DNA of 64,000 nt, from positions 77,001 through 141,000 of the forward strand of contig NC_016586.1 of the NCBI RefSeq assembly GCF_000283655.1, given 5' to 3'. The DNA comes from Azospirillum lipoferum 4B (GTDB lineage Bacteria > Pseudomonadota > Alphaproteobacteria > Azospirillales > Azospirillaceae). Under the pieces are notes generated by a model. It was not told the DNA's origin, did not search any database, and worked only from the letters and a program-made list of their open reading frames with translations. Positions 14,787-62,703 of the stretch are shown here, piece by piece; the first letter of the stretch is position 1; each line of letters starts with the position of its first letter. A program made the position numbers and the translations under genes.

Positions 14787-14804
14787 CGGGGGCTCCCGGC
14801 TTAT

Positions 14805-16031: not shown

Positions 16032-16053
16032 CGGCGTGGTCCCGTGCCTGCGG

Positions 16054-19305: not shown

Positions 19306-19309
19306 TGCA

Positions 19310-40987: not shown

Positions 40988-42154
40988 TACCAGCGGCTTT
41001 GAAGTGTGACTCGTCACGGTGGATTCCCTTTTGGTCCGCCCTGTGATTCGCTGCCAGCTCTCGGAAGGAGGCGGGTATGGCGGCGATTGCGATCACGCGG
41101 CTGGAGCTGAGTTCAGCGGAGTTGCGCCAGCGGGCGGTGCGTTTTGGCGATCCGGATGTAGCGCGGCGCCTTCTCGCCCTAGCTCTGGTTTTGGAGGGGC
41201 GATCTCGCGAGGACGCCGCGCGGTCTTGCGGGATGGATCGGCAAACGTTGCGGGATTGGGTTCACCGCTACAACGCCCAAGGCGTGGCGGGGCTGCGGGA
41301 TCGTAAGGCACCGGGAGCCAAGCCGAAGCTGTCGGCGGAGCAGGAAGCGGAGGTGGCGTCCTGGGTCCGCTCCGGTCCGGACCTCGCCGAGGATGGCGTG
41401 GTTCGGTGGCGGCGGTGCGATCTGGCCCGCAAGATCGAGCGCCGGTTCGGCGTGGTGCTGGCCGAGCGCAGCGTTGGCGGGCTGTTGCGCCGTCTGGGGT
41501 TCCGTCGCCTGTCGGTGCGCCCCCAGCATCCTCAGCAGGATGGCGAGGCGCTCGAGGCTCACAAAAAAACTTTGCCGCTCTGGTTGCCGGCGCCCTCCCC
41601 GACACCGCCCGCGGCAAGCCGCTGGAGCTCTGGTGGCAGGACGAAGCCCGGGTCGGCCAGCAAGGGACCCTGACCCGGGTGTGGGCCGCCAAGGGCAGCC
41701 GGCCACGCGCGCCCCGCGACCAGCGCCATAGCTGGGCCTACCTGTTCGGCGCCGTCTGCCCGAGCCGTGGCGCCGCCGCGGCCTTGGTCCTGCCCAAGGC
41801 CAACGCCGCGGCAATGACCCTGCACCTGGCCGAGATCAGCGGCCAAGTGAGCGACGGCCACCATGCGGTGCTCATCCTCGACGGCGCAGGCTGGCACCAG
41901 CCGGGCGACAAGCTGGTCGTGCCCGAAAACATCAGCCTTCTGCATCTGCCGCCCTATTGCCCGGAACTCAATCCGGTCGAAAACATCTGGCAGTTCCTGC
42001 GACAGAACCACCTTAGCCATCGCGTCTTCGATTCCTATGCCGCCATCGTCGAGGCCTGCTGCGAGGCGTGGAACGCTCTCGCCCAGGCACCCGAAATCAT
42101 TCGCTCAATCGCCTCACGCTCGTGGGCAGCGGTCAATGTCTAAAGCCGCTGGTA
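40988..42154 (+). mobile_element. IS630-family insertion sequence, copy 3 of 3
   Basis: 1167 bp, ends TACCAGCGGCTTT and AAAGCCGCTGGTA, flanked by TGA on both sides (40985-40987, 42155-42157). Inserted within an IS30-type transposase gene. It differs from copies 1 and 2 by a few bases. Confidence 0.9.
41077..42143 (+). CDS. IS630-family transposase, two frames joined by -1 frameshift
   Basis: Same architecture as the other two copies: first frame 41077-41673, second frame about 41562-42143, with the run of seven A at 41563-41569. One residue differs from the other copies in the DDE domain (TLHLAEISG instead of TLHMAEISG); catalytic Asp, Asp and Glu are unchanged. Confidence 0.85.
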
Positions 42155-42610: not shown

Positions 42611-42636
42611 CCCTCCGATAAGCCTGGGGCGGTTCA
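42611..42636 (-). repeat. Solitary IS3-type terminal repeat
   Basis: CCCTCCGATAAGCCTGGGGC followed by GGTTCA closely matches the right end of the intact IS3 element (4571-4596). Its outermost TGA, read on the minus strand, is the stop codon of the Fe/2OG oxygenase gene. Confidence 0.6.
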
Positions 42637-43332
42637 GTCTTGCGGAACCATGTGGGTAGGGCGCTGGCCGAGGATCGCCTTCGCAGTGTCCGGGAGGATG
42701 TCTCCGGTGACGGCGAAACGGAAATCCAGACTGACTCGCGTCATGCCGGCGTCGTTGGCGACGGTGCCATGCTCCAGCAGACCGCCGTCGAACACCAGCG
42801 CCTCACCATAGGCCACATCGATGGGCCGGAAGTCGCGCAGCCCGTAATCGGTTTCCGACCACAGGGTCCCTCCTTCGCGGCAGTCGGTGAAGGGGAGCCA
42901 GACGGTGATCTGGTCGTATCGCCCGGTCACGTCGGCGTCACGGTGCCAAGCGCTGACCGAACCGGTGTCCGGAAGATGGACCCGCATCTTCGGACGGTTG
43001 GAGTAGGAGATCCGCCCGCCGAAGACGGGGGCGATCACCTGACGGACGAACCGGTGGTAGAGCTGGAAAAGCGGCGAGGCATCGGGGAGGTTCTGCATCA
43101 GTGCCCGCAGGGCCAGATTGTCCGCATAGGTCGGCGCGGTGTCCTGCCCCTGGCGCTCACGGTGGCGTTGCCAAGCCTCGTGGAGCCGCTCCAGGGAGCG
43201 GACCTTGAAGACCGTCGCGGCCGTCACCTTGGCGAACGGATAGCGGCCTGTGTCGTACCGCAGAAGCGATGCCGTCCGCACCGCCGCCACCGGGATCAGC
43301 GGAGTCCGCGCCTCTATGCCGTCCACCATCAT
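42634..43332 (-). CDS. Fe(II)/2-oxoglutarate-dependent oxygenase
   Basis: 232 aa from the ATG at 43332 (MMVDGIEARTPL), preceded by AAGGACGG; the longer open frame overlaps the methyltransferase gene. The double-stranded beta-helix shows the metal motif HxD...H: AWHRDADVTGRYDQITVWLP, then the second His in LLEHGTVAND and the 2-oxoglutarate Arg in MTRVSLDFRF. It resembles phytanoyl-CoA-hydroxylase/StrG-like enzymes that hydroxylate small molecules or peptides. It begins 41 bp after the borosin-type methyltransferase and is the last gene of that operon, so hydroxylation of the same product is likely. Its TGA stop lies in an IS3 terminal repeat, so the native C-terminus may have been slightly longer. 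Confidence 0.8.
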   Translation of the reverse strand: MMVDGIEARTPLIPVAAVRTASLLRYDTGRYPFAKVTAATVFKVRSLERLHEAWQRHRERQGQDTAPTYADNLALRALMQNLPDASPLFQLYHRFVRQVIAPVFGGRISYSNRPKMRVHLPDTGSVSAWHRDADVTGRYDQITVWLPFTDCREGGTLWSETDYGLRDFRPIDVAYGEALVFDGGLLEHGTVANDAGMTRVSLDFRFAVTGDILPDTAKAILGQRPTHMVPQD

Positions 43333-43373
43333 GTCTTCCGTCCTTCCAGACCGGTTCGCCCGGATCAGGGGAA

Positions 43374-45770
43374 TCAGGGGAGCAGGCGGGCGAGGGCGGT
43401 GTTGACCACCGTCGCCGCGAGATTCGCCTTCTCCCACTTGTGCCAGAGCAGGAACTCGCCGTCGGGCCGTCCCGCCAGATCGACCAGCTGCCGCCAGGCC
43501 GCGGCTTGCAGCCCGAATTCCGGCTCAGGCCGGTTCGCCTGGGTCGGCGCTGCTGCGCGGCCGATACAGCGGACGGTGCCGGCAGGCGTTTCCACCGTCC
43601 CGAACAGTGCGGGACACAAGGTGATCGGATCCAGCAGCAAAGTCACCTGCCCGGCGGAGCAGTGCGCCGGCCCGCCCGACCAGGAAACGATGGACCCGTC
43701 GAGATCGATCGTGCCGGCCGCCTGTCCGTCCAGCAGCAGGCCGCCCGCCGCGTAGGAGAGGGAGCGCAGCCCGCCGTCGGCGGCGCGCACGACGTAACTG
43801 CCGGTCAGAGGGGCGAGCCCCGGTTCCGGCATCCAGGCGCCGGTCGGCGCATCGGCGGAACCGCCCAGGACGAAGCTGAGATCGCCGACGCTGAGCGTTC
43901 GCCCGCCGACCACGATGGCTCCATCCAGGGGCCGGCCGTCCAGCGTGACGCACAGATGGCGGCCGCGCTCCGGCGTTTCGGCCACGCCGACCTCCAGGCA
44001 TTGCGGCCCCTCGGCGCCCTTGCGGGTGTAGCGTCCGGCCAGCGAGGACGGGTGCCGATGTCCGGGCCGCCCCTCGACGGCGACGAGCCCGTGTTCGGCC
44101 GGAACCGGCTCCCCCGCGGGCCAGATGGAACCGATCAGGCGGCGCCCGCCCTGCACGTCGACGTCCACCCGCAGGAATCCGTTGTCGGCACGGCCGGCTC
44201 CGGCCTTCCATTGCAGGATGCCACGCCGGAAGGAGAAGCGGCGGACCGGTTGTCCATCGACGAACAGCCGCGCCCGGTCGCCGTCCCCGGTCAGGACGAT
44301 CAGGCGCCCGTCCTCTCCGGTCTCGCCCCGCACCTCGTAGACGCCTGCCCAGGGGAACAGGCGGTCGCGCAGCACCCCGTTGACGTCGGTGCGCATGCGG
44401 TCCCAATCCAGCGCAAGCCCCTGACCGGCCGACCACTCGGCCAGGGCGCCGGTGGCCGTTTCGGGACGCACGCCACGCAGGACCGCCAGCAGGCTGCGCA
44501 TCACCGGTTTGCGGTCGAACAGCTGGAACAGGAAATCGCGGTTGCCGGGGTGGGCGACGCCGGTGCCCTTGGCCGCGATCTGGATCGCGCCGTGATCGCG
44601 GGTCGCCAGCAAGGAGCGCTCGCGGTCGGTCAGGCCGGGGAAGGACTCCGGCGCGACGGCGGCGCGCGGGTCGCGTTCATAGCGTTCCTGCAAGGCCGGA
44701 TTGCTGCGCAGGGCGATGAGGAAGCGGCTGGCGCCGGTGTCCTCCTGCCATTGGTAGTCGCGGGAGACCTTGAACCGGCGGAAGGCGCGGAACGCCTTGC
44801 GCTCGCGCGGGCCGTACAGCCCGATTTCGCGCAGCGGCCCGTCCGATGTCCGGACCTCCTGTCCGGGCTGGATCAGGCCGAGCCGGATCAGCATGTCGAG
44901 ATCGGCGGCCGCGGCGTTCTTGGGCGGCACGTAGAAGGTCGACACCCCGGTGACCCGGGTCTGGATCTGCGGATCGTGCAGCGCGCTCAGCGGATAGACT
45001 TCGATGGTCGGCGGGATGGTCGGATACCGGGAGGCGATGTAATGCGTCACCGGATAGTCGTCACCGTAGTATTTCTGGAGATACTCGACGAAAACCGAGA
45101 AGTTGTTGTTGATGTAGCCGCGGCGGCGGAACCCCATTTCTCCGATCAGGCCGACCTGCCATAGCACGACGTGCAGGCTGGTGTCGGGGATACGCCCCCG
45201 GATCAGCATGTCGGTCGCCTCATGGGTCTGCATGCCCGGATGGCAGGGGTCCACCCCCAGGTCGGCGCACAGGCAGTCCAGCGCGCAGACGCCCGGCCGC
45301 ATCACCGCCTTATGCCCCTCGCGCCGGGCGATCATGATGCAGCGGTGGGTGGACAGCACGAAGATGCCGGGATGGCCGTAATAGACCGCCACCACCTTCT
45401 TGCCCTGGCGGACGTGATGCAGCATCGCCTCCGACATCTGCATGTAGGTGGTGTAGCGGACCTTGGTGTCGTCGTAGAGCACATAGAGGTCGTAGGCGTC
45501 CGGCCGGATCGACTTCAGCCAGACCACCGTGGCCGGATCGGCGACGCAGAAGAAGACCGCATCCGCACCGCGGATCAACTCTTCGTCGCCGATGGTGAAT
45601 CCCATCGTCTCGATGCCGGAGCCGATGATGGTCAGTTCCCCCGGACGTGCCGGTGGATGTGCCGGCGCGTCCTGTGAAACGCTGTCCGCCGATGCAGCGA
45701 TGGCTTGGGCCAGTTCCTCCCAGGCGCGGGCATGCTGCTCCCGGGTGGGGAAGTGTATGGTGTCGGTCAC
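43374..45770 (-). CDS. Borosin-type peptide alpha-N-methyltransferase with large C-terminal extension
   Basis: 798 aa, GTG start with GAGGG upstream. Residues about 44-300 match the SAM-dependent peptide-backbone N-methyltransferase of borosins (OphMA/SonM type; tetrapyrrole-methylase fold): ELTIIGSGIETMGFTI, KVRYTTYMQMSEAM with the catalytic Arg105/Tyr109 pair, YYGHPGIFVLSTHRCIMIAR, MRPGVCALDCLCADLGVDP, HEATDMLI, VVLWQVGLIGEMGF and GVSTFYVPPKNA. Residues about 340-415 (ASRFLIALRSNPALQERYER, then LTDRERSLLATRDHGAIQIA) look like the borosin-binding/clasp helical domain seen in precursors. Residues about 440-798 are beta-rich, without a typical hydrophobic core peptide; the last residues are NLAATVVNTALARLLP. 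It is preceded by three paralogous beta-rich proteins and followed by an Fe/2OG oxygenase. The enzyme family is clear; the substrate is not. Confidence 0.9.
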   Translation of the reverse strand: MTDTIHFPTREQHARAWEELAQAIAASADSVSQDAPAHPPARPGELTIIGSGIETMGFTIGDEELIRGADAVFFCVADPATVVWLKSIRPDAYDLYVLYDDTKVRYTTYMQMSEAMLHHVRQGKKVVAVYYGHPGIFVLSTHRCIMIARREGHKAVMRPGVCALDCLCADLGVDPCHPGMQTHEATDMLIRGRIPDTSLHVVLWQVGLIGEMGFRRRGYINNNFSVFVEYLQKYYGDDYPVTHYIASRYPTIPPTIEVYPLSALHDPQIQTRVTGVSTFYVPPKNAAAADLDMLIRLGLIQPGQEVRTSDGPLREIGLYGPRERKAFRAFRRFKVSRDYQWQEDTGASRFLIALRSNPALQERYERDPRAAVAPESFPGLTDRERSLLATRDHGAIQIAAKGTGVAHPGNRDFLFQLFDRKPVMRSLLAVLRGVRPETATGALAEWSAGQGLALDWDRMRTDVNGVLRDRLFPWAGVYEVRGETGEDGRLIVLTGDGDRARLFVDGQPVRRFSFRRGILQWKAGAGRADNGFLRVDVDVQGGRRLIGSIWPAGEPVPAEHGLVAVEGRPGHRHPSSLAGRYTRKGAEGPQCLEVGVAETPERGRHLCVTLDGRPLDGAIVVGGRTLSVGDLSFVLGGSADAPTGAWMPEPGLAPLTGSYVVRAADGGLRSLSYAAGGLLLDGQAAGTIDLDGSIVSWSGGPAHCSAGQVTLLLDPITLCPALFGTVETPAGTVRCIGRAAAPTQANRPEPEFGLQAAAWRQLVDLAGRPDGEFLLWHKWEKANLAATVVNTALARLLP

Positions 45771-45837
45771 GATGGGGTCTACCCTCGTTGCAGTCCGGCG
45801 GATGCGGAGCGATGTGGAAAAGACCGGGAGCCGCGGA

Positions 45838-47736
45838 TCAGGCGTTCTTCCCGGAGATCTGCTTCAGGTATTCCAGGGCGACGTTGCAGGCGACCTTCAC
45901 CGGCAGCGGCTTGCCGTCATAGGTGTAGGAGGCCAGCACCTGATACGCCTGGTACTGGGTGGCGGCGCTGCCGTACTGGGCCAGTTGGTTGACCAGGGCG
46001 ACCTCGGTCGCCTGCGGCCAGTTCCACCCGGACTGCGCGGAATCGGCGGCGGGATCCTTGGTCATCACGATGGTGGTCAGAACCATCTGCTGGGTGCCGG
46101 TCGAAGGCACGTCCGCAGCCACCGAACCGGCCTGGACATAGTCGGCGAAGGTGGTCCAGCGGGTTGCGATCGGGTTGTTCTCGTTCAGCATGTAGTTGAT
46201 CAGCAGGCCGAGCCCGGTGCTCTGCTGCGGCGCCATGTTCTGGAGGTCCTGCGAGGCGGCCTGCTGCCAGACCTGGAGCAGCTTCTGCGCCGAGGTGAAG
46301 GCGACCATGATCGCCAGGTTCTTGACCAGCGCCGGGAAGCCCTTGCTGACGATCCAGCTGCCGAGGTTGGACAGTGCCCCCTTGATCATGCCGGGCTGGA
46401 CGTTTACGTCGGTGTCGATGTCGGTGTCGGTATCGACGTCGGTGACGTTGTCGGTGTCCGTAACGTTGTCCGTGTCGGTGACCACGTCGGTGTCCACATC
46501 GACGTCGACGTCCACATCCACGTCGATGACCGCGAAGACGTCGTCGTCGATGTCGATGTCGATGTCGATGTCCACATCCACGTCGGTGTCGGTGACGTTG
46601 TCGGTGTCCTCGACGTTGTCGGTGTCGGTGTCGATGTCCACATCGACGTCGACGTCCACATCCACGTTGATCGGCTCCGCCTCCTCACCGATGGCGGAAG
46701 CCGGGCTGGCCGTGCCGCTCTGGGCGCTCAGCGCGCTGTTGCCCGAGCTGATGAAGCTGGAGATCTTGGACGACAGATAGCCGATCCCGTTGGCGACGCC
46801 CCCCAGAACCGTGACCGCCATGTCCAGCGCCATCGCCAGCTGTACGGTCTGGAAAGCGCCATAGGCGAGATCGTAGGCGGCGATCCACCAGGGGATGGAC
46901 GGATTCTGGTAAGGCTGGGCCACCAGCGTCTGTCCGTTCAGCGTGCCGACGAAGCACAGGACGACGCTGTCCGGCTGTCCTTCCCAGGCGAGGCTGCGCG
47001 GCACGGCCGTCAGCAGCAGGCCGGCGGCCGCGGATGCGCCGTCGGACGACAGGGTGCTGTGGGAGAAGGTCAGCGGCCCCGTCGACGGGGTTCCGGCCGC
47101 GGGCGTGAAGGTCGCCGTGCCGTTCGCGACGGTCAGGGTTCCGCAATCGGACGGCGGGATGACGAAACCGGAGCTGCTGGTCTGCGGCTGGTAGCAGTAA
47201 TAGGTCCCGGGCCAGGCGTTCAGCGAATTGGTCGCCCAATAGCTGACGATCGACCAATGGCCGTAGGTCGCACCGTTCATGCCGTTGGTGCTGAAGAAGG
47301 TGGCAACGGCGGATTCTAGCGTCGAGACGTCGGTGACGTTGACGAACAGCTCGTTGAACTGGAGCGAGGCCGGGGCGTAGGGCTGGCTCATCACCTGCTG
47401 GTAGAAGCTCAGCACGGTCTGGCAGGTCTGCAGGTCCGTCTGCGCGACCGTGGTCGCGGCACTCTCGGCCAGAATCGACGGGATGAAGAGTTGGAGCGGG
47501 AAATCGTCGCTCGCCCGGCAGATCACCATGCGGCACAGCGCGTCCGGGGTCGTGAAGCTCTGGGCGCCGTTTGCGGGAACCGTGGCGATCTGCGTGTAGA
47601 CCGGCAGGTAATCCGCCGGGTTGGTGCTGGGCGGGCTGCTGGGAGGCGTGGGCGTCACCGTGGAATAGACCACGAGCGGAAACGAAAGCTGATTGGTGAC
47701 GGTGACCGGAATGCCGGCCGCGACGGCGTTGGACAT
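45838..47736 (-). CDS. Beta-rich membrane-associated protein with Asp-Val repeat (paralogue 3)
   Basis: 632 aa from the ATG at 47736 (MSNAVAAGIPVTVTNQ), preceded by GGAGCAGAC. Residues 1-280 are the beta-rich domain shared with the two upstream genes (VTVTNQLSFPLVVYST, LFIPSILAES, FYQQVMS, PGTYYCYQP, GPLTFSHSTLSSDG). About 282-320 are hydrophobic (WWIAAYDLAYGAFQTVQLAM). About 356-446 are an extraordinary run of alternating Asp and Val/Ile/Thr/Asn. A second amphipathic region (LSNLGSWIVSKGFPALVKNL) and a helical C-terminal domain follow. No signal peptide. It is 67 bp upstream of the methyltransferase gene. It is the leading candidate substrate; function is otherwise unknown. Confidence 0.72.
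   Translation of the reverse strand: MSNAVAAGIPVTVTNQLSFPLVVYSTVTPTPPSSPPSTNPADYLPVYTQIATVPANGAQSFTTPDALCRMVICRASDDFPLQLFIPSILAESAATTVAQTDLQTCQTVLSFYQQVMSQPYAPASLQFNELFVNVTDVSTLESAVATFFSTNGMNGATYGHWSIVSYWATNSLNAWPGTYYCYQPQTSSSGFVIPPSDCGTLTVANGTATFTPAAGTPSTGPLTFSHSTLSSDGASAAAGLLLTAVPRSLAWEGQPDSVVLCFVGTLNGQTLVAQPYQNPSIPWWIAAYDLAYGAFQTVQLAMALDMAVTVLGGVANGIGYLSSKISSFISSGNSALSAQSGTASPASAIGEEAEPINVDVDVDVDVDIDTDTDNVEDTDNVTDTDVDVDIDIDIDIDDDVFAVIDVDVDVDVDVDTDVVTDTDNVTDTDNVTDVDTDTDIDTDVNVQPGMIKGALSNLGSWIVSKGFPALVKNLAIMVAFTSAQKLLQVWQQAASQDLQNMAPQQSTGLGLLINYMLNENNPIATRWTTFADYVQAGSVAADVPSTGTQQMVLTTIVMTKDPAADSAQSGWNWPQATEVALVNQLAQYGSAATQYQAYQVLASYTYDGKPLPVKVACNVALEYLKQISGKNA
46400..46669 (-). repeat. Asp-(Val/Ile/Thr) repeat-coding tract
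   Basis: About 270 bp coding for some 90 residues in which nearly every second one is Asp. It divides into two similar halves of about 43 residues, each with a VDVDVDVDVD ladder and DTDN(V)xDTDNV units, separated by DDDVFAVI. Synonymous codons vary (gtc/gtg/gac/gat mixed), so the pattern is kept at protein level and is not a simple recent DNA expansion. Confidence 0.9.
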
Positions 47737-47817
47737 GCTGTCTGCTCCGATGTTCTGGGGGATGATCGGCGTGGTGTGCGGAGGCGCGGAGGCGTTGTCG
47801 CGATCCGGGAAGACCAC

Positions 47818-49527
47818 TCATTCGTTCCCGGAAATCTCTCCGTCCTTGATCATCGAGCTTTCCTCTTCCAGTGCCTTGTCCTGGGATTCGAGATCGGTCT
47901 GCACGGCCTTGTCCTGCATCAGCGTCTTCGCGGCCTGACCGGCGAGCCGCGAGCCTACGGCGGCGGTGATCTTGTCGATCAAGGCCTGGTTCTGGGACAG
48001 GTTGTCCGCGATGGCCTCGAGGTTTCCCGAAGCGCCGCTGTTGCCGGGCTGAATTTGCTGAAGCTGGCTTGCGGTGTTCCGCAGGGTGTTTGCCGCCGAA
48101 CTCATGTCGCTGTTGTTGCTGAACTGGCTGAGAACCCCAAGCTCGCCTCCCTGTTCCCCGATAATGTTCGTCTGGTTCTGCACCACGATGGAATTGCTGC
48201 TTTCAACCAGCCCGCCCCGCAGCGCAAGCGCGTCGGCACTGATGTCGGCCGGTGCGGAAATTCGTACACCGGCGTTCATGTTCTGCAATTCCAGAACGAT
48301 GCCGTTCTGCCGGTTGATTTCGGCGACGGAAAGGTCGCTCCGGTCCTGGTTGACCTGCGCCTGCGTGGGCGGCGCCCCGCCGTTGGCGGCCTCGTTCGAG
48401 CGGAAGCGGTTTCTCAGCCAGCGGACACCGTCCGCCAGCAGCTTGATGCTGAACGCCACGCCGATCAGGGCGAGGGAAAGCTGCACATACTGGTTGGCGA
48501 GGATGGTCCCGAGATTATTGAGGAAGTCCTGCCAGCCGCTCTGCTCTTGATCGACGCCGACCATCTGCTGCCCGTTCGCGGTGCCGTTCAGCGTCAGGAT
48601 GATGGTGCCGTAGTCGTCGGAATTGCCCGTGAAGGTGCTGAGCGGCGTATAGCTCGGCACGAGACTGATCGTCTGCACCGCGTCGGTCGTGCTCGATACC
48701 AGCACCCCGTTCGAGAAGGTGAGCGGCGTCGGGGTGCCGTCGCCGTCGAAATACGTGACCGTATAGCCGGCATCGGGATCGGTCACGGACGGCACGCCGG
48801 CGGGCTGGTTCCGCAGGAAGGTAACCTTGCCGCAGGCCTGTGCCTCCGTTCCCTTGCCGGCGCTGGTGTAAAGGTAATAGGTGAAGCTGTCCTGGAAACC
48901 GGCCCAGGCCGTCGCGAAGGTGGCGACGTAGGTCGATACCGCGACATAGGCGTCCAGCGTGACCGTCTGGTAAGCTGGATATTGCTGGAAGAACTGGTTG
49001 ACCGTCGAATCGACCCCGTTCGAACTGGCCGAACCGCTGCGCGCCGCGTTGAGAGCGGCGGTAAAGCCGGTTGCCAGGTTGGACGTCGGATAGGCGGTGA
49101 TGGTCTGGTAGAACTGCAACGCACTGACGAAGGGATCGGCGCCGTTGCCCGATGCCGCGACGGTGATCTTCGGGTAGATGGGCGGATCGTCGGACGACAG
49201 CATTTCCGACACGACCTGGACCGGGAACAGGTTGTCGGCCTGCGCGACGATCAGGTCGTAAACGGTCATCGGGACGCCGTTCAGCACGTCGTCCAGCGTT
49301 ATGCTGTCTGTGGCCGAAGGAGCCAGCGTGTCGCCGCCCATGAACGGCAGGAGCTCGAGCGTCTGCTCGTAGCCCTGCTGGGTTCCGTCGGGATCGCTGT
49401 TGTAGGCGTTTATGACCACGATGTCGCCGTTCCAGCCGGTCTGCGGCTGGGCGGGGTTGGCGGGTACTGCCAGGGAATTGGAGACGATGCAGCTGGTGCT
49501 GCTGGTACCGGTCGTGGCTTGAGCCAT
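47818..49527 (-). CDS. Beta-rich protein with membrane segment and helical tail (paralogue 2)
   Basis: 569 aa, AGGGGAAAGCC before the ATG. Residues 1-330 are beta-rich and near-identical in plan to paralogue 1 (NGDIVVINAYNSDPDGTQQG, LPFMGGDTLAPSATDSITLD, FPVQVVSEML). A hydrophobic segment near 340-365 (YVQLSLALIGVAFSIKLLAD) is followed by a Gln/Asn/Ser-rich helical tail ending LESQDKALEEESSMIKDGE. No signal peptide. Second gene of the borosin operon, 81 bp before paralogue 3. Not recognised as a known family. Confidence 0.72.
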   Translation of the reverse strand: MAQATTGTSSTSCIVSNSLAVPANPAQPQTGWNGDIVVINAYNSDPDGTQQGYEQTLELLPFMGGDTLAPSATDSITLDDVLNGVPMTVYDLIVAQADNLFPVQVVSEMLSSDDPPIYPKITVAASGNGADPFVSALQFYQTITAYPTSNLATGFTAALNAARSGSASSNGVDSTVNQFFQQYPAYQTVTLDAYVAVSTYVATFATAWAGFQDSFTYYLYTSAGKGTEAQACGKVTFLRNQPAGVPSVTDPDAGYTVTYFDGDGTPTPLTFSNGVLVSSTTDAVQTISLVPSYTPLSTFTGNSDDYGTIILTLNGTANGQQMVGVDQEQSGWQDFLNNLGTILANQYVQLSLALIGVAFSIKLLADGVRWLRNRFRSNEAANGGAPPTQAQVNQDRSDLSVAEINRQNGIVLELQNMNAGVRISAPADISADALALRGGLVESSNSIVVQNQTNIIGEQGGELGVLSQFSNNSDMSSAANTLRNTASQLQQIQPGNSGASGNLEAIADNLSQNQALIDKITAAVGSRLAGQAAKTLMQDKAVQTDLESQDKALEEESSMIKDGEISGNE

Positions 49528-49629
49528 GGCTTTCCCCTGTTTCCTCGAATTGACGGCGTCGCAGGCGGCGAAAGCGGCGGCGGCGCCCCCGCCGGGGGGA
49601 CGCCGCCGCCGGCAATCATGCTCCGCGCA

Positions 49630-51342
49630 TCAGCGGAAGACGTCCTCCACGTCCTCCCCGAACTCGCCGTCTTCGAGGTCCGAATCCTCCGTGTTTTCTT
49701 CCTTCTCTTCTTCCTCTTCCGTTTCCTCTTCTTCTTCGGCGGCCTGGACCGTAGCCTTTTCGTTGCTGGCCATACCCGCAGAATCCTGCTCGTTCTGCTT
49801 GGTGAGGTCAGTCTGGATATTGCTCAGAGACGTCTCATCCGCTGCCAGCTTCTGCGGAGCCTGCGGGTCGGTGGGGCTCAGGCTGTTCACGTCGCCGGCG
49901 ACCTGGCGAAGGTTGCTGGCATCCGTTTCGACACCGGTGTTGACGCTGACCTCCGCATCGTCCTGGAGTTCGGTCTGCTCCTTCGCGATCCCGTCCTTGA
50001 CCTCGGTGATCTGGTCTTCGGTGTTGTTCTGGACCATTTGGGACTGAAGGTTGGTCTGCGCCTCGGGCATGGCGGACGGTGCGGGAACCGTCCCGCCGCT
50101 GCCGACGTCGTTCAGCTTGGTCTGCAACTCGGTCTGGATACCCTGCTGCACCTCGGGAAGCTGGCCCTTGATTTCCGAGACCTGTTCCTGGGTGGGAGGG
50201 GTCCCCTTGTTGGCGGCCTGCGTGGAGGCGAGCTTGCCCTTCAGCCAGGCCACGCCGTCCACAACCGTCTTGATGCCCATCGCGACGCCGGTGATCTGGA
50301 CGAACAGCTGGACATACTGGTTGTTGAGAACGGTGCCGAGGAAGTTCAGGAAGTCCTGCCAGTCGCTCTGCTGCTCATTGACGCCGACCACCTGCTGGCC
50401 ATTCACGATGCCGCTCGTCATCGGCATGATCGTGTTGTAGTCGCTGGACTGGCCGGTGAAGGTGCTGAGCGGCGAATAGGCCATCTGCAGGCAGATCGGC
50501 GGGTTGTCCTGGGTGGTGCTGGAGACCAGCTGCCCCTTGGAGAAATAGAGCGGGGTCGTGTTGCCGCTGGTGTCGGTGTAGGTGATGGTGTAGCCGCTGC
50601 TCGGGTCGGTCGGCGAAGGCAAGCCGGAGGCCTGGTTCAGGACGAAGGCAACCGAGCCGTAGGCCTTCGCCTCGGTCCCCTCGCCGCCGCTGACGTAGAG
50701 ATAATAGGTGTAGCTGTTCTGGAAATTGGCCCACGGCGCGGCAAAGCTCGTGAGGTAGGTCGACACCGCGACATAGGACGCGAACGTGACGTTCTGGTAG
50801 CTCTGCGTTCCCTTGAAGAACTGGTTGACCGTGGAATCGACGTCGCTGGACTGTGCGGCGGACGAACTGGCGGAATTGCAGGCGGCGGTGAAGCCCGTCG
50901 CCAGATTGCAGGACGGATCCGCGGTGATGATCTGGTAGAACTGCCAGGCGCCGATGAAGGGATCCGCATTCGCGGCCGACGGCTCCACCGTGATTGCCTG
51001 ATAGTCGAAGGTGGTGAAGGACATCATCTCCGACACGACCTGGACCGGGAACAGGTTGTTGGCCTGCGCGATGAGCAGGTCGTAGATGCTCATCGGCACG
51101 CCGTTCAGGACCTGATCCAGCGTGATGCTGTCGGTGGCGGAGGGCGCCAGCGTGTTGCCGCCCGTGAACGGCAGCAGCGCAAGCGTCTGCTCGTAACCCT
51201 GCTGGGTACCGCTGGGAGCGCTGTTGTAGGCATTGATGACCACGATGTCACCGTTCCAGCCGGTCTGCGGCTGGGCGGGAGTGGCGGGCGCGACCAAGCA
51301 ATTGGTGACGCTGCAGCTATTTGCAGAATTCGTATCAGACAT
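49630..51342 (-). CDS. Beta-rich protein with membrane segment and acidic tail (paralogue 1)
   Basis: 570 aa, TGAGGAATATTAAAA before the ATG. Shares with paralogue 2 the opening CLVAPATPAQPQTGWNGDIV, LPFTGGNTLAPSATDSITLD and FPVQVVSEMM, the middle SYTYYLYVSGGEGTEAKAYG, and a hydrophobic segment near 337-362 (YVQLFVQITGVAMGIKTVVD). The C-terminal 200 residues are Gln/Asn/Asp-rich and helical, ending in a Glu run (AAEEEEETEEEEEKEENTED) and DLEDGEFGEDVEDVFR. First gene of the five-gene operon, next to a lower-GC upstream region. Likely anchored in or inserted into a membrane; role unknown. Confidence 0.72.
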   Translation of the reverse strand: MSDTNSANSCSVTNCLVAPATPAQPQTGWNGDIVVINAYNSAPSGTQQGYEQTLALLPFTGGNTLAPSATDSITLDQVLNGVPMSIYDLLIAQANNLFPVQVVSEMMSFTTFDYQAITVEPSAANADPFIGAWQFYQIITADPSCNLATGFTAACNSASSSAAQSSDVDSTVNQFFKGTQSYQNVTFASYVAVSTYLTSFAAPWANFQNSYTYYLYVSGGEGTEAKAYGSVAFVLNQASGLPSPTDPSSGYTITYTDTSGNTTPLYFSKGQLVSSTTQDNPPICLQMAYSPLSTFTGQSSDYNTIMPMTSGIVNGQQVVGVNEQQSDWQDFLNFLGTVLNNQYVQLFVQITGVAMGIKTVVDGVAWLKGKLASTQAANKGTPPTQEQVSEIKGQLPEVQQGIQTELQTKLNDVGSGGTVPAPSAMPEAQTNLQSQMVQNNTEDQITEVKDGIAKEQTELQDDAEVSVNTGVETDASNLRQVAGDVNSLSPTDPQAPQKLAADETSLSNIQTDLTKQNEQDSAGMASNEKATVQAAEEEEETEEEEEKEENTEDSDLEDGEFGEDVEDVFR

Positions 51343-52008: not shown

Positions 52009-52382
52009 TGATCTTGCCCCGGTTTGGTGGACACCTCAGCCAAGCTCCGATTGGAGCGGGAAGGTGTCTGATGACGAAGACAAGGCGATCCTTCACGGAC
52101 GAGTTCAAGCGTGAGGCTGTAGCCCTGCTGGAAGGGAGCGGCCGGCCGCTGGAGCATGTGGCGCGGGAGTTAGGCCTGCAGGATTCGGTACTGCGGAACT
52201 GGCGGCGGGTAGCCCAAGGCCACCGGGACGTGTTCGCCTAAATCGAAACCTACTACAATCGCCAAAATCGCCAAAATCGCCAAAATCGCCAACGCGCCCA
52301 CTCGGCCATCGGATACATCACCCCCGAAAAGACCGAGCTAAGATCTGCGTGAACCCGTGTCCACCGAACCGGAGCAAGATCA
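52009..52382 (+). mobile_element. IS3-derived internally deleted element, copy 2
   Basis: 374 bp, same inverted ends and same orfA-orfB junction as 26888-27234, in the opposite orientation. It is exactly 27 bp longer because of three extra 9-bp repeat units. The fused frame carries a stop after VFA. No target duplication is evident. Confidence 0.8.
52257..52292 (+). repeat. Four tandem copies of AATCGCCAA
   Basis: A 9-bp unit repeated four times where the other copy of this element has one. In the orfB-derived frame it encodes (Asn-Arg-Gln)x4 before RAHSAIGYITPEK, so the expansion keeps the frame. Confidence 0.9.
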
Positions 52383-52465
52383 TCCGTAAAGATCCGCCGT
52401 GTCGTCGTCATTCTTGACCTCTCCGCTCCATCTGGAGCTTAGCAGAGGTGTCCACTGATTCGGAG
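52383..52465 (-). pseudogene. Left end of another IS3-type element
   Basis: The minus strand reads GTGGACACCTCTGCTAAGCT and, after a ribosome-site-like AGAGGTCAAGA, ATG with MTTTRRIFTD, a divergent version of the orfA start MTKTRRSFTDEF. It is cut by the IS3-derived element at 52382. Confidence 0.5.
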
Positions 52466-52566: not shown

Positions 52567-54396
52567 TCATGGCAACCCCGACGGGGGCACCGTTCGATTT
52601 TCTCCGTCCGGTATCGCAACGGGACTGTGGCGGGCGGAAGCCATGAGATCCGCATACAGTCCGCCAAGGGTCAGCAACTCGTCGTGCCTCCCCTGCTCGA
52701 CGATCCGCCCGGCGTCGAGGACGATGATGCGGTCGGCTTGCCGGATGGTCGACGGCCGGTGGGCAATGACCAGTACCGCATGATCCCGCTTTATGGTGGC
52801 AAACGCCTTGTGAAGAGCCTGCTCGTTCTCTGCATCGAGATTGGAGGAGGCTTCGTCGAGCAGCAGGATCGGGGCCCGCGTCAGCAGCGCTCGGGCAATC
52901 GCCAGACGTTGGCGCTGCCCCCCGGAAAGGCGCATGCCGCGCTCGCCGCACATCGTCCGGTATCCCTCGGGAAGCCCGGCCACGACGTCGGCGGCCTGCG
53001 CCAACCGCACCGCCCGCTCGACCTCGTCCATCGCCGCATCCGGGGCGCCGAGCCTCAGATTGTCGGCGACAGTCTCATTGAACAGGTGGACATCCTGCGG
53101 CACATAGGCGACGAGCCGGCGCAGGGCGTCGACCGGCAGGGTCCGGATGTCGCATCCGCCGATGCTGATCCGCCCCGATCCGACGTCCCAGAAACGCAGC
53201 AGCAGATTGGCGGCCGTGCTCTTGCCGGCCCCGGAGCGACCGACCAGCGCCACCATCTCCCCGGGCGAGAGGCTGAGATCGAAGCCGTCCAGCACGTCGC
53301 CCCGGCCGTTGCCATACCCGAAGCCGACATGCTCGAAACGGACCGTCGCATCCTGCGGAACCGTCTGGCGGCCTTGATCGGCAATCCGCGCCGGCTGGTG
53401 GAAGATGGTCAGCACGCGGGCGGCCCCGGCACGCAGTTCGCCCAGCTTGCGCGCCGTCTGCGTCACCTCGGCGATGGGGGTGAGCGCGCCACCCGCCAGA
53501 ACCAGGGCCAGCGGGAAAAGCGCCCGGTCCAGCCCTGCTCCGGCGACAAGAACGCTGCCGACGAGAGCGGCAGTCAACACCGCGAGCGTCGTCAACCCGT
53601 CGATCATCGCCAACTCCAGGCCGGCGCGCGATCCATAGCGACGTTGCGCGGCGGACAGCAGCTCGGTTTGCCGCGCCAGCCGCGCCAGGAAGTCGCGTCC
53701 CCGACCGAAGATCGCCAGCTCGCGCAGCCCCTGAACGATCTCCACCGTCCGGGCATTGAGGCGGCCGAGTTCCGCCAATGCCAGCGCGCCCTGTTCCCCG
53801 GCGCGACGGGCCAGCCAATAGGGGACGCTGGCGACCAGGACCAGGAAGGGAAACAGCGCCGCCGCCATGACCGGGTGGATCGCGCAAAGACCGGCCAGGG
53901 CCGCAAGCGGCACCAGAAGGGCGCCGACATAGTCCGCCAGGGTATGGGCGTAGAAATGCTCCATCAACTCGGCGTCGCTGGTGGCGATGGCCGCGAGTTC
54001 TCCTGTCTGCCGCCCGAGTACGGAATCCGGAGCCGCCCTTTCCAGCCCGTCATAAATGCCGATCTGCAACGTCTCGATCAGCGCGAAAGCCAAGGCATGG
54101 GAGATGTGGGCCTGCCACCAGCGCGCCCCGGCGGCGGCCACGACCACGATGCCGAACAGCCAGAAGCCGGAAACACCAAAGCCGGGAAGGGGGTCGGGCA
54201 GCGCGGCCCCCGTCACCGCCCGGCCGACCAGCCAGGCGCCGCATGCCAGACTGGCGAGCGTGCCGCCCTGGGCGAGGACGCCGGACAGCATCGTCAGAGC
54301 CAGCAGCCGGCGGCGCCCTTTCAGGAGCGGCAGCAGCCCGAGAATACCGGCAGCACCCTGTCTCGCCGCCAATCCGGAAAAGATCCTGGCAATCAT
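52567..54396 (-). CDS. Half-size ABC transporter, siderophore-associated (second of pair)
   Basis: 609 aa. Six hydrophobic segments in residues 25-330 are followed by an ATPase: Walker A GRSGAGKST near 388, signature LSGGQRQ near 490, Walker B ILLLDEASSNLD near 510. The start overlaps the stop of the first transporter by four bases, so the two are coupled and probably form a heterodimer. In sequence alone it resembles CydC, but its place at the end of a siderophore uptake operon favours the YbtPQ/IrtAB type, which moves or releases iron from siderophores in the inner membrane. The tail after the ATPase (VAIPDGENRTVPPSGLP) is short and variable. Confidence 0.8.
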   Translation of the reverse strand: MIARIFSGLAARQGAAGILGLLPLLKGRRRLLALTMLSGVLAQGGTLASLACGAWLVGRAVTGAALPDPLPGFGVSGFWLFGIVVVAAAGARWWQAHISHALAFALIETLQIGIYDGLERAAPDSVLGRQTGELAAIATSDAELMEHFYAHTLADYVGALLVPLAALAGLCAIHPVMAAALFPFLVLVASVPYWLARRAGEQGALALAELGRLNARTVEIVQGLRELAIFGRGRDFLARLARQTELLSAAQRRYGSRAGLELAMIDGLTTLAVLTAALVGSVLVAGAGLDRALFPLALVLAGGALTPIAEVTQTARKLGELRAGAARVLTIFHQPARIADQGRQTVPQDATVRFEHVGFGYGNGRGDVLDGFDLSLSPGEMVALVGRSGAGKSTAANLLLRFWDVGSGRISIGGCDIRTLPVDALRRLVAYVPQDVHLFNETVADNLRLGAPDAAMDEVERAVRLAQAADVVAGLPEGYRTMCGERGMRLSGGQRQRLAIARALLTRAPILLLDEASSNLDAENEQALHKAFATIKRDHAVLVIAHRPSTIRQADRIIVLDAGRIVEQGRHDELLTLGGLYADLMASARHSPVAIPDGENRTVPPSGLP

Positions 54397-56126
54397 GCGG
54401 CTGCCCCCTGAAGTGCGGCAAGCCGGGCATAGACGCCGCCGTTCCGTTCGAGATCGGGACGCGCGCCGTCTTCGACCAGCCGGCCACCGTCGAAGACGAG
54501 GATCCGGTCCGCATCGGCGACGGCCGACAGCCGATGGGCGATGAGCAGGGTGGTGCGCCGGCCGGACTGCCTGGCGAGCGCCTCCCGGATCGCCTGCTCG
54601 CTTGCGGGGTCGAGGCTGGAGGTGGCCTCGTCCAGGATCAGGATCGGCGCGTTCTTGAGAAGCGCGCGTGCGATGGCGATACGCTGACGCTGCCCGCCGG
54701 ACAGCGTCGCTCCGCGTTCCCCGATCCGGGTCGCATAGCCGAGCGGCAGGCTTTCGATGAAGGCGTCGATGTGAGCGGCCTGGGCCGCGGCCCGGATCTC
54801 CTCATCCGTCGCGTCCGGTTTCGCCAGTTTGAGATTGTCGGCGACCGTGCCCTCGAACAGCACCGTATCCTGGGAAACGACGCTGATGAGCGAGCGCAGC
54901 GTCTCCAGCGGCAAGGAGCGGATGTCGGTTCCGCCGATGCGGATCGTACCGGCGTCCGGATCGAAGAAGCGAAGCAGCAGGGCGACGACGGTGGACTTGC
55001 CCGCTCCCGAGGGTCCGACCAGCGCGACATGTTCCCGTGCCGCGACATGGAAGGACACGGCATCGAGCGAAGGCGCTCCCCCGCCCGCATAGCTGAAGCG
55101 GACATCCTCGAACCGGATGTCGTGGGCGGGCGGTGCCGGCAGCGGCCGGTCCGCTTCGCGCACCGGCGGATCCATCGCCAGGAATTCCATGATCGGCGCG
55201 ACGGCTCCGCCGACCGCCCAAGCGCTGTGGAACTCACGCTCCAGTCGTTCGAGCGGCCGGAACGCCTCCCGCGCCAGGAAAAGCGTGACCAGCATCGCGA
55301 AGGGATCGAGAGTGCCGGACGATACACGCCATGCGCCTGCCGAGAGAACGAGCGCCATACCCGACAGCATGACCAGGCCGGTCAGGCCGGTTCGCATCAG
55401 GGTGACCGCCAGGGTGGTCATCGATTCCCGCCGCAACGCGGCCGCATGGTCCGCCAGCACCGCCCGCCGCCGTGCCGAGGCGCCGAAGGCCTTCACCGTG
55501 ACGATGCCCTGCAGGCTGTCGAGCAGATAGGCACCGAGCGCACCCAGAGCCGCGAAGATTCCGGAGGTCCGCGGCATCCGCCACCGCAACCACAGCCGGT
55601 CGAGCACGGGAAAGCCGCCGACGAACAGGCACAGCAGGGCGGCCGAAGGCCAATCGACGGCGGCGATGGCGGCGAGAATGCCGCAGCATCCGAGAACGGC
55701 GTTCCAAAGAGCCGGCAGATAGCGGCTGTGATAGGTTTCCAACGCCTCGACGCCGCCGACCAGGATCGCCTGAAGCTCGCCGGTCCGCCGGCGAAGCGTG
55801 ACGCCCGGACCGAGATCGAACAGGTGCCGCAGCAGCCGGCCGCGCAGCGTCTCCTTCACCGTGCGCGCCGTCGCCTGGGCAGCGATCTCCGCCCCCCACA
55901 GCAGCAGCGCACGCGCCAGCAGGACGGCGCCAAGTGCCAGAAGCAAGGGCATGATATGCTGAACCATGACGCGCGGATCGGGATCGCCGCCGACCGCATG
56001 CGCGAGCAGCAACGCCAGGAGTCCGCCCTGAAGACCATAGCATGCGGTGACGGCAAGGCCGATGACGACACTCACCGCGATGGGCCAGCGGACGGAGCCG
56101 CCCACGGCCAATGCTTTCCCCGGCAT
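54393..56126 (-). CDS. Half-size ABC transporter, siderophore-associated (first of pair)
   Basis: 577 aa from the ATG at 56126; GAAAGG lies 9-10 bp upstream, whereas the in-frame GTG at 56135 directly abuts it. N-terminal membrane domain (residues 10-310), then Walker A GPSGAGKST, signature LSGGQRQ and Walker B ILILDEATSSLD in the last 240 residues. It follows the FecE-like ATPase gene by about 100 bp and is coupled to the second transporter. Candidate role: import of ferric siderophore across the inner membrane, or export of the apo-siderophore; the sequence does not decide. Confidence 0.8.
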   Translation of the reverse strand: MPGKALAVGGSVRWPIAVSVVIGLAVTACYGLQGGLLALLLAHAVGGDPDPRVMVQHIMPLLLALGAVLLARALLLWGAEIAAQATARTVKETLRGRLLRHLFDLGPGVTLRRRTGELQAILVGGVEALETYHSRYLPALWNAVLGCCGILAAIAAVDWPSAALLCLFVGGFPVLDRLWLRWRMPRTSGIFAALGALGAYLLDSLQGIVTVKAFGASARRRAVLADHAAALRRESMTTLAVTLMRTGLTGLVMLSGMALVLSAGAWRVSSGTLDPFAMLVTLFLAREAFRPLERLEREFHSAWAVGGAVAPIMEFLAMDPPVREADRPLPAPPAHDIRFEDVRFSYAGGGAPSLDAVSFHVAAREHVALVGPSGAGKSTVVALLLRFFDPDAGTIRIGGTDIRSLPLETLRSLISVVSQDTVLFEGTVADNLKLAKPDATDEEIRAAAQAAHIDAFIESLPLGYATRIGERGATLSGGQRQRIAIARALLKNAPILILDEATSSLDPASEQAIREALARQSGRRTTLLIAHRLSAVADADRILVFDGGRLVEDGARPDLERNGGVYARLAALQGAAA

Positions 56127-56224
56127 TCGGGACACCCTTTCAGAATGATCGCAACGAGACTTTCCGGTCGCACGCGCATCGGCCCGGCGCGGACACCGGC
56201 GGCCATCCTCGATGACCGGCGGTA

Positions 56225-57013
56225 TCAGGCCAGGCCGTCCACCGCGAGATAGGCTCCGCCGCCCGCCGCCCGGCCGACGCGGGCACTGACGCGATAGACG
56301 CTTCGCAACAGGTCGGACGTGAGCACATCGGCCGGTGTTCCGGCATCGGCGACACGCCCGTCATGCAGGAAGATCAACTGGTCCGCCCAGTTCGCCGCCA
56401 GGGAAAGATCGTGCAGAACCACGATGACGATGCGGCCTTCCCGCGCCACGGACTTTATCGCCGACATCACCTCGACCTGATGGCGCAGATCGAGCGCGCT
56501 CGTCGGTTCGTCCAGAAGCAGGATCTGCGGCCTGCGGACCAGCGACTGGGCAAGGCTGGCCATTTGCCGCTGCCCGCCCGACAGCTGACCGAGCGGCCGC
56601 ATCGCCAGGTGGAGGATGCCGATCCGTTCCAATGCCGACAAGGCGGCGTCCTGGCTGCGCCGGGCGGAGATGCCGGGCGAGAACAGCCGCAACGAGGCCA
56701 GGACGCTGTCGAGCACCGTCAGCCCATTGGTTGCGGCGATGGATTGCGGCATGAAGCCGACCAGCTCCGCCCGCCTGTGCGCAGTCAGGTCCAGCAGGTT
56801 GCGACCGTCATAGAGGATCTCTCCCGACGCCCTGATCATGCCGGCAAGGGCGCGCAGCAGGGTCGATTTGCCGGCGCCGTTGGGTCCGGCGAAGACACTG
56901 ACCTCTCCCGGCCGGATCGTGGGAAGGTCGACGCTGTCGAAAATGACGGTCGTGCCGTAGCGGACGGTCAGCCCCCGCACGCCCAGGGGTCCTTTCGCGG
57001 GATTGTCGGTCAT
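56225..57013 (-). CDS. Iron-siderophore ABC transporter ATP-binding protein (FecE/FhuC family)
   Basis: 262 aa from the ATG at 57013, which overlaps the permease stop (ATGA). Walker A AGPNGAGKST near 43, Q-loop GFMPQSIAA, signature LSGGQRQ near 143, Walker B ILLLDEPTSALD and the H-loop VIVVLHDLSLAANWAD. It powers uptake through the FecCD-type permease. The longer open frame upstream is antisense-like read-through of the permease gene. Confidence 0.9.
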   Translation of the reverse strand: MTDNPAKGPLGVRGLTVRYGTTVIFDSVDLPTIRPGEVSVFAGPNGAGKSTLLRALAGMIRASGEILYDGRNLLDLTAHRRAELVGFMPQSIAATNGLTVLDSVLASLRLFSPGISARRSQDAALSALERIGILHLAMRPLGQLSGGQRQMASLAQSLVRRPQILLLDEPTSALDLRHQVEVMSAIKSVAREGRIVIVVLHDLSLAANWADQLIFLHDGRVADAGTPADVLTSDLLRSVYRVSARVGRAAGGGAYLAVDGLA

Positions 57014-58077
57014 CGCAGCCCCCGTCCCCCCAGCAGCAGCGCGACGAAGCAGGGCAGCCCGACCAGCGACGTGACGATTCCGATCGGCAGAAGCACACCG
57101 GGCAGGAGTGTCTTGGAGGCGATGCTCGAAAACGACATGACCACCGCGCCGGCGAGGATCGACGCCGGCAGGAAGAAGCGATGATCCTCCCCAACCAGCA
57201 GCCGCGCGATGTGCGGACCGACCAGTCCGACGAAGCCGATGGTGCCGGCGACCGCGACCGCGACCGCCGACAGCAGGCTCGCCCGCAACAGGCAGCCGAC
57301 CCGCAGCCATCGCGGATTGACACCGAGGCTCTGCGCCCGTTCCTCGCCCAGCGCCAGCAGGGTGAGCGACCATGCCGCGCGCATGGAGAACGGGATGGCG
57401 CCGGCGAGAACCAGGGCCAGCACGGCGACGGAGGTGCCGTCGGCCCGGTTCAGGCTTCCCATGGTCCAGAAGACCAGATGCTGCAGCGAGTCCGCTGGTG
57501 CTATGAACTGGATGACGGCGACCAGCGCGTTGAAGCCGAAGACCAGAACGATCCCGAACAGCACCAGCGGCATCGCCCCCTGTCCCATGGCCGCGAGGGC
57601 CTGGATCAGCATCACCGATCCGATGGCGAAGAGAAAGGCGTTGACCGGCACCGCCAGCACCGGCGGCACGAATGGAACGGCGATGCCGAGCACGATGGCC
57701 AGGGCGGCGCCGAACGCGGCCGCAGAGGAAATGCCCAGCGTAAACGGGCTGGCCAGCGGGTTGTGCAGGATCGTCTGCATCTCCGCGCCCGCCAGCGCGA
57801 GGCTGGCACCGACCAGCACCGCCAGCACCGCCGCCGGCAGACGGATCTGCCACATGATGACCGCAGGCAACCCCTGGTCGCCACCGGCACCGAACAATCC
57901 GTCCAGGATATCCCGCAGGGACAGACCGGCCGGACCCGTCATCAGGTCCGCCAACAGGCCGGCAAGCATCAGAACCGCCAGAACGGCGATGCGGACCGAT
58001 CGCCGTTTCAAGCCGTCCGAATACTGGGCGGCGATCCCGGCCCTCGATACCGCTTCGCCGGCTCCGATTCCGCTCAT
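57010..58077 (-). CDS. Iron-siderophore ABC transporter permease (FecCD/BtuC family)
   Basis: 355 aa from the ATG at 58077, coupled to the binding-protein stop. About nine to ten membrane segments. Family motifs include IRLPAAVLAVLVGASLALAG, MQTILHNPLASPFTLGISSA, and the ATPase-contacting VGLVGPHIARLLVGEDHR region near 270. A single permease gene, so it probably works as a homodimer. Confidence 0.9.
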   Translation of the reverse strand: MSGIGAGEAVSRAGIAAQYSDGLKRRSVRIAVLAVLMLAGLLADLMTGPAGLSLRDILDGLFGAGGDQGLPAVIMWQIRLPAAVLAVLVGASLALAGAEMQTILHNPLASPFTLGISSAAAFGAALAIVLGIAVPFVPPVLAVPVNAFLFAIGSVMLIQALAAMGQGAMPLVLFGIVLVFGFNALVAVIQFIAPADSLQHLVFWTMGSLNRADGTSVAVLALVLAGAIPFSMRAAWSLTLLALGEERAQSLGVNPRWLRVGCLLRASLLSAVAVAVAGTIGFVGLVGPHIARLLVGEDHRFFLPASILAGAVVMSFSSIASKTLLPGVLLPIGIVTSLVGLPCFVALLLGGRGLR

Positions 58078-59240: not shown

Positions 59241-59251
59241 TCTTGGCGTCC

Positions 59252-61489: not shown

Positions 61490-61526
61490 GGAAAGCCTTC
61501 CCGGCGCCTCCAGGCAACGCCGCCGC

Positions 61527-61558
61527 CTTTCGATGGCCGCACTTTTTCTTTCGATAGC
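61527..61558 (-). promoter_or_regulatory. Direct repeats, candidate PchR-type activator site
   Basis: CTTTCGATGGC (61527-61537) and CTTTCGATAGC (61548-61558), spaced 21 bp, two helical turns, 38 bp upstream of the receptor ATG. AraC-family regulators such as PchR bind paired direct repeats, and a gene for one lies just upstream. Confidence 0.45.
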
Positions 61559-61728
61559 GGCGCATGGGTTTGGGAGCACGGTGAGCGGATGCCCGATGGA
61601 AAACCCCACCGAAGGCTCACCCGGAAACGGCCTCACCCGGATCGGAGCGCTGATGGTCCGGTCCGGGCGAGACGTGTGCCTTGCGGGAATCCCCGCCCCT
61701 CATCCATGGGCGGAGTTGGGACATGCCT

Positions 61729-62625: not shown

Positions 62626-62703
62626 AAAGCCTTTCCCCACATCCAAAGACACCCATCCAAGGGACGAGGTGCCTCAATCATGTTCATTGCGCATCATATT
62701 GCG

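What the first reader, a model, noticed from the sequence alone, without database searches (positions are those of the whole stretch)
42634..51342. Five-gene operon built around a borosin-type backbone N-methyltransferase
One minus-strand transcription unit encodes three paralogous beta-rich proteins, a clear borosin alpha-N-methyltransferase (YYGHPG, LWQVG, GVSTFYVPPK, Arg105/Tyr109) and an Fe/2OG oxygenase. Known borosins act on a short hydrophobic core fused to, or separate from, the enzyme. Here no ordinary core peptide is visible and the likely partners are 570-630 residue proteins. This could be a new borosin architecture that methylates, and perhaps hydroxylates, large proteins.
Basis: partly seen in the sequence, partly recalled or inferred. 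Interest (0 to 1): 0.92.

Follow-up and report, generated by a model that had tools for sequence, protein, structure and literature searches.

The report
Split borosin operon with internal core

Summary
The five genes are present. The methyltransferase is a borosin alpha-N-methyltransferase by sequence (OphMA-like over residues 41-402, E 8.5e-78), and nine of nine SonM active-site and lock residues checked are in register. The claim that no core is visible is wrong. The 632-residue protein just upstream of the enzyme carries a 91-residue alternating Asp-X tract, the pattern published for type III cores (PMC11395268). The tract-bearing protein adjoins the enzyme in 8 of 8 long-enzyme loci. The tract is the best-conserved part of it: window against L004, 97% versus 66% for both flanks. 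The enzyme carries its own clasp/BBD, and the carrier keeps 186 residues after the tract: the published class 2 split layout with a type VIII-like follower. An Fe/2OG oxygenase follows in 6 of 7 testable loci; core-less paralogues occur in 7 of 7. Best reading: a split borosin whose substrate is the internal tract, then hydroxylated; a new member of a known kind. Still unusual: the core is buried inside a protein, and no protease or exporter was seen in the shared cassette. Methylation itself is untested, and the papers defining types V-X could not be read.

The parts
49630..51342 (-). paralogue A, 570 aa: N-terminal domain shared with the carrier, hydrophobic helix, then a Gln/Glu-rich stretch (coiled coil presumed) with acidic tail; no Asp-X tract
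   Evidence: a homologue in 7 of 7 testable loci
47818..49527 (-). paralogue B, 569 aa, 50% identical to A; no Asp-X tract
45838..47736 (-). core carrier (precursor), 632 aa: N-terminal domain, long helix, Asp-X tract, long helix, helical C-terminal part
   Evidence: the helix layout comes from a low-confidence model (mean pLDDT 44.5)
46399..46671 (-). candidate core: 91-residue alternating Asp-X tract (INVDVDVDV...DIDTDVNV)
   Evidence: seen in 8 of 8 loci (seven, the eighth)
43374..45770 (-). borosin alpha-N-methyltransferase, 798 aa, long form
44871..45650 (-). catalytic domain (about residues 41-300) with Y96, Y99, R105, Y109, Y131, W204, Q205, E211
44565..44870 (-). clasp/BBD-like region (about residues 301-402), aligned to OphMA up to its residue 376
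   Evidence: sequence only
43377..44564 (-). C-terminal extension (residues 403-798) of unknown fold, in part shared with the fused enzyme of L029
42634..43332 (-). Fe/2OG oxygenase, 232 aa
49576..49610 (-). 15-bp G+C-rich hairpin between paralogues A and B; role unknown
   Evidence: z -2.18 for the 108-nt stretch; 4 of 200 shuffles fold as well

Best explanation
This is a split borosin cassette. The 798-aa enzyme brings its own binding domain and methylates backbone amides of the Asp-X tract inside the adjacent 632-aa carrier, preferentially at the aliphatic X residues (Val, Ile, perhaps Thr). The alternation fits the every-second-residue register (i and i-2) seen in SonM-SonA. The Fe/2OG oxygenase then probably hydroxylates residues of the same tract, perhaps Asp beta-carbons. 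The core-less paralogues probably assemble with the carrier. Shown here: the enzyme family and its active-site residues, the tract, its conservation, and the linkage. Inferred: that the tract is the substrate, the methylation register, the oxygenase target, and the role of the paralogues.
For: The enzyme matches OphMA over catalytic domain and clasp. Nine of nine SonM residues named in the passages read of PMC8429565 fall on identical residues at one constant offset of 38. The tract-bearing carrier is next to the enzyme in 8 of 8 loci (window, L001, L002, L003, L004, L010, L028, L036). In five pairwise comparisons the tract is 97/73/87/74/67% identical, against 66/60/51/45/31% on the N side and 66/58/53/51/38% on the C side, with 32-70% of its identical residues using another codon. 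An alternating acidic core is published for type III, and KchMA methylates Ala, Val, Leu and some Asp between positions 742 and 796. A related enzyme in L029, within the same tree clade, is one fused 1174-aa protein ending in a D/I/V-rich acidic tail. B. arboris L011 has an enzyme, a TEVTTEVT-repeat protein and a homologous oxygenase in a row. The oxygenase is present in 6 of 7 testable loci.
Against: No methylation data exist here. No shared domain links carrier and enzyme (hhalign probability 0.1%), so docking is unexplained. L028 has no oxygenase match, so hydroxylation cannot be obligatory. The Ser that the KchMA study assigns to SAM binding is Cys in seven of the eight long enzymes (Cys162 in the window) and Ser only in L036 and in the fused L029. 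The offset of 38 to SonM was inferred from spacing, not read from a printed alignment. The structure model is too poor to place the tract. By KchMA-TEV preferences acidic residues are poor substrates, so about half of the tract may stay unmodified. The primary papers on types V-X were not available.
Confidence: 0.77

Rival explanations
1. OphMA-style self-methylation: the core is the enzyme's own hydrophobic C-tail (KANLAATVVNTALARLLP) and the carrier is only a partner.
For: The tail is hydrophobic and ends the protein, as in fused borosins; the (L/F)W...K part just before it is kept in the seven enzymes aligned.
Against: The tail varies among the seven enzymes aligned, contains Arg/His/Asn, and looks like an amphipathic helix by eye; the tract-bearing carrier adjoins the enzyme in 8 of 8 loci.
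Confidence: 0.08
2. The Asp-X tract is a metal-binding structural repeat (DxDxD, calcium or other ions) and not a methylation substrate; the enzyme acts elsewhere.
For: 37 Asp in 91 residues; NCBIfam matches the tract to Asp-rich Sdr/Clf adhesin repeats (best E 2.8e-7, 29 bits against a cut-off of 1700). An oxygenase could make beta-hydroxy-Asp.
Against: Type III cores are described with the same pattern; full matches to the carrier profile lay only beside borosin enzymes in the seven genomes or records searched, and in 398 genomes the three matches outside the centre were tract-only and weak (best E 7.2e-6).
Confidence: 0.1
3. The core-less paralogues (Gln/Glu-rich acidic tails) are the main substrates.
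For: Present in 7 of 7 testable loci and acidic.
Against: Their C-terminal parts vary in length and sequence and show no alternating pattern; the carrier tract is far better conserved.
Confidence: 0.05

Closest known systems
Class 2 split borosins, type VIII in particular (as described in PMC11395268; primary papers not held)
   Same: BBD on the enzyme, core on a separate protein (class 2); a stretch after the core (about 160 aa published for type VIII, 186 here)
   Different: No sequence comparison with PmoM/PruM was possible, and whether type VIII belongs to class 2 could not be read (it is in the figure); paralogues and an oxygenase are not mentioned in the passages I read
Type III borosins (AboMA, KchMA)
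   Same: Alternating acidic/other core; a long enzyme; KchMA modified between positions 742 and 796
   Different: Core fused to the enzyme there; on a separate protein here
OphMA (type I, fused)
   Same: Catalytic domain and clasp aligned over residues 41-402, E 8.5e-78
   Different: Short hydrophobic C-terminal core (recalled); no comparable ~395-aa extension (the OphMA-type PDB chains matched are 386-420 aa)
SonM/SonA (type IV, split)
   Same: Active-site residues; separate precursor
   Different: The BBD sits on the small precursor SonA (PMC8429565); in the tree the window's enzyme lies apart from 15 other borosin-like enzymes that match it mainly over the catalytic domain. SonM itself was not in the tree

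Membership tests
borosin alpha-N-methyltransferases | OphMA/SonM-like catalytic domain with the Tyr/Arg/Tyr/Tyr set | tested here: met
   one KchMA SAM-binding Ser is Cys162
borosin alpha-N-methyltransferases | backbone N-methylation of a core peptide | not testable with these tools
   needs mass spectrometry
class 2 split borosin (PMC11395268) | methyltransferase and BBD in one protein | tested here: met
   alignment to OphMA runs through the clasp to residue 402; sequence level only
class 2 split borosin (PMC11395268) | core on a separate protein | tested here: inconclusive
   the Asp-X tract is on the carrier and not on the enzyme in 8 of 8 loci; that it is the core is inferred
type VIII borosin | about 160 residues after the core | tested here: met
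   186 in the window; 175-189 in five of the six other loci measured, 576 in L028
type VIII borosin | sequence kinship with PmoM/PruM and their precursors | not testable with these tools
   papers not held; no sequences at hand
type III borosin | alternating acidic/other core | tested here: met
   for the pattern; that it is a core is inferred
type III borosin | core fused to the enzyme | tested here: not met
   separate ORF
type IV borosin | BBD on a small precursor | tested here: not met
   BBD-like region on the enzyme; no similarity between carrier and enzyme profiles; carrier is 632 aa

The most novel reading that the evidence does not exclude
The end product is not a released small peptide but the whole modified protein assembly: an internal ~90-residue segment, N-methylated at alternate residues and hydroxylated, held between two long helices of a ~630-residue protein that works together with its core-less paralogues. 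No protease or exporter was seen among the genes shared by the loci, and one relative (L028) extends the carrier by a C-terminal domain with repeated propeller-like motifs (by eye), as if for binding or delivery.
Probability: 0.3. Interest if true: 0.8.

Novelty: new member of a known kind. Interest (0 to 1): 0.5.

Why it matters
[quoted passage not shown] This cassette offers a clear, testable substrate with an extreme alternating pattern, a recurrent oxygenase and core-less paralogues, in eight loci from an Azospirillum-like window and from Beta- and Gammaproteobacteria. If the tract is methylated inside an intact protein, it would be a natural case of long-range backbone N-methylation within a protein and not of a small peptide, and a useful enzyme for making N-methylated polypeptides.

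Tried and rejected
Structure: one AlphaFold job on the carrier gave mean pLDDT 44.5, so it is used only for a rough helix layout. The job for the enzyme and the fold search were not accepted in any attempt because the machine was busy. PDB sequence searches with the carrier and paralogue profiles gave only weak hits (best E 0.39 and 0.0093, the latter a designed coiled coil; haemolysin II C-domain at 0.023), and none is taken as evidence; the oxygenase had no hit up to E 1. Pfam and PHROGs gave nothing for the carrier or paralogues. NCBIfam gave only matches far below its cut-offs: carrier to Sdr/Clf adhesins from 2.8e-7, and single hits at 0.092 and 0.062 for the paralogues. Homology of the B. 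arboris repeat protein with the enzyme extension looked tempting by eye but BLAST gives E 0.042-0.046: not shown. Genome sampling with P0001 at E<=1e-50 found 1 of 369 (class of G004), 1 of 151 (family of G004), 1 of 330 (order of G002) and 2 of 298 genomes (genus of G003), each count including the centre itself. In a phylum sample 15 of 398 matched at E<=1e-15, of which the centre and G030 match along most of the enzyme. So the cassette is rare and scattered in these samples.

Full report
Observation. On the minus strand of 42634-51342 five ORFs follow one another: paralogue A (570 aa), paralogue B (569 aa), a 632-aa protein (ATG 47736), a 798-aa methyltransferase and a 232-aa Fe/2OG oxygenase (ATG 43332). 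A and B are 50% identical. The 632-aa protein is a remote relative of both (hhalign probability 98.3%, E 1.1e-14, 269 columns), and the shared domain stops before the Asp tract. A 15-bp G+C-rich hairpin lies between A and B, so a single transcript is not shown.

The enzyme. phmmer against the PDB gives OphMA at 8.5e-78 over residues 41-402, MroMA at ~1e-67 and SonM at ~2e-42. Pfam sees only TP_methylase. Nine residues that the passages read of PMC8429565 name in SonM (Y58, R67, Y71, Y93, F99, E146, W166, Q167, E173) coincide with identical residues at a constant offset of 38 (9 of 9); the offset was inferred from spacing, not read from a printed alignment. The KchMA positions given in PMC11395268 are met by spacing at Y96, Y99, R105, Y109, Y131 and Q205, but the Ser assigned to SAM binding is Cys162. 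That Cys is shared by seven of the eight long enzymes; L036 and the fused L029 have Ser. After the clasp region comes a ~395-residue extension without a Pfam hit.

The missing core. Residues 383-473 of the carrier's mechanical ORF (window 46399-46671) are an alternating Asp-X tract: 41% Asp, X mostly Val, Thr, Ile. In each of the seven loci analysed, 0 of 2000 shuffles of the tract reached the observed number of Asp-Asp gaps of two. The eighth, L036, was fetched later and its tract was read by eye. PMC11395268 (first two of five parts, the figure legends and passages read; [quoted passage not shown] The window's carrier has 186; five of the other six loci measured have 175-189 and L028 has 576.

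Conservation. Against L004, L001, L002, L003 and L010 the tract is 97, 73, 87, 74 and 67% identical over aligned positions. The N-terminal part is 66, 60, 51, 45 and 31% identical and the C-terminal part 66, 58, 53, 51 and 38%. Within the tract 59, 69, 70, 32 and 52% of identical residues use a different codon. The tract is therefore kept at the protein level; its length varies (71-129 residues), as expected for a repeat. The low composition diversity of the tract will itself raise its identity somewhat.

Linkage. The carrier is adjacent in 8 of 8. The oxygenase matches in 6 of 7 testable loci (none in L028; L002's contig ends). A core-less paralogue matches in 7 of 7 testable loci (L002's contig starts about 300 bases before the carrier); in L036 it lies after the oxygenase. 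In five genomes (G001-G004, G030) and two plasmid records, the carrier and paralogue profiles hit only these loci, apart from opposite-strand tract echoes there. In a 398-genome phylum sample the carrier profile found, besides the centre, three genomes with weak tract-only matches.

Kin with other layouts. A tree of 25 methyltransferase rows puts the eight long enzymes, the L029 enzyme and the B. arboris L011 enzyme in one supported group (100/100), apart from 15 other borosin-like enzymes that match mainly over the catalytic domain. L029 is a single 1174-aa protein, 37% identical to the window's enzyme over residues 7-746, that ends in an acidic D/I/V-rich tail: a fused arrangement within the same clade, its exact place unresolved. 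A Cupin_8/JmjC-type protein, a fold of Fe/2OG oxygenases, lies about 3.3 kb downstream of it. L011 has a 450-aa enzyme, a 308-aa protein with TEVTTEVT repeats and an oxygenase homologous to the window's (E 4e-23).

Mechanism. The enzyme probably docks the carrier through an interface not yet identified (no shared domain), threads the tract through its active site and methylates alternate amides. SonM methylates Leu63 and Ile65 (PMC11285071, passage), i.e. i and i-2, the same spacing as the Asp-X register. The oxygenase probably acts next. These steps are inferred. Among the genes shared by the loci I saw neither protease nor transporter. The flanking ORFs were read by eye and not scanned systematically; L004, for one, has a VanY-like (by eye) reading frame on the other strand at 13337-13978, and ABC exporter genes of a presumed siderophore locus lie next to the window's operon. 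So the modified segment may stay in the protein, but a protease or exporter encoded elsewhere is not excluded.

Compared with what is known. The layout equals class 2 of PMC11395268, and the stretch after the core equals its description of type VIII. I could not read the primary papers that define types V-X (recalled as Imani 2022, Cho 2022 and Lee 2024; not held), so kinship with PmoM/PruM is untested and the cassette may already be listed there. Borosin papers were sought. The finding is filed as a new member of a known kind.

Origin of the window. DNA matches point to Azospirillum and kin, mostly through insertion sequences; no genome is held.

Noticed in passing
4644-19753: A 3380-aa ORF without any Pfam match, followed by a 408-aa endonuclease/exonuclease/phosphatase-like ORF (below the Pfam cut-off), a 1083-aa ORF and a 147-aa ORF without matches: an unexplained giant-protein cluster.
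   Followed up: partly
52567-62652: Two ABC exporter-type genes, a further ABC-type gene, a periplasmic-binding-protein gene, a TonB-dependent receptor and an AraC regulator: looks like a siderophore locus, probably unrelated.
   Followed up: partly
41077-42143 and 52014-52383: An IS630-like transposase frame and matches to IS3-family transposases flank the operon; an IS66 transposase lies at 20934-22460.
   Followed up: no
L028:6186-9461: The core carrier is extended to 1091 aa by a C-terminal stretch with repeated LYLAxTGxDxxxYxxSSxDG-like motifs, propeller-like by eye; no Pfam match.
   Followed up: partly
52257-52292: Four perfect copies of a 9-bp unit.
   Followed up: no
L029:3931-6900: A 989-aa protein with PQQ-propeller and phospholipase D-like domains beside the fused borosin enzyme.
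   Followed up: no
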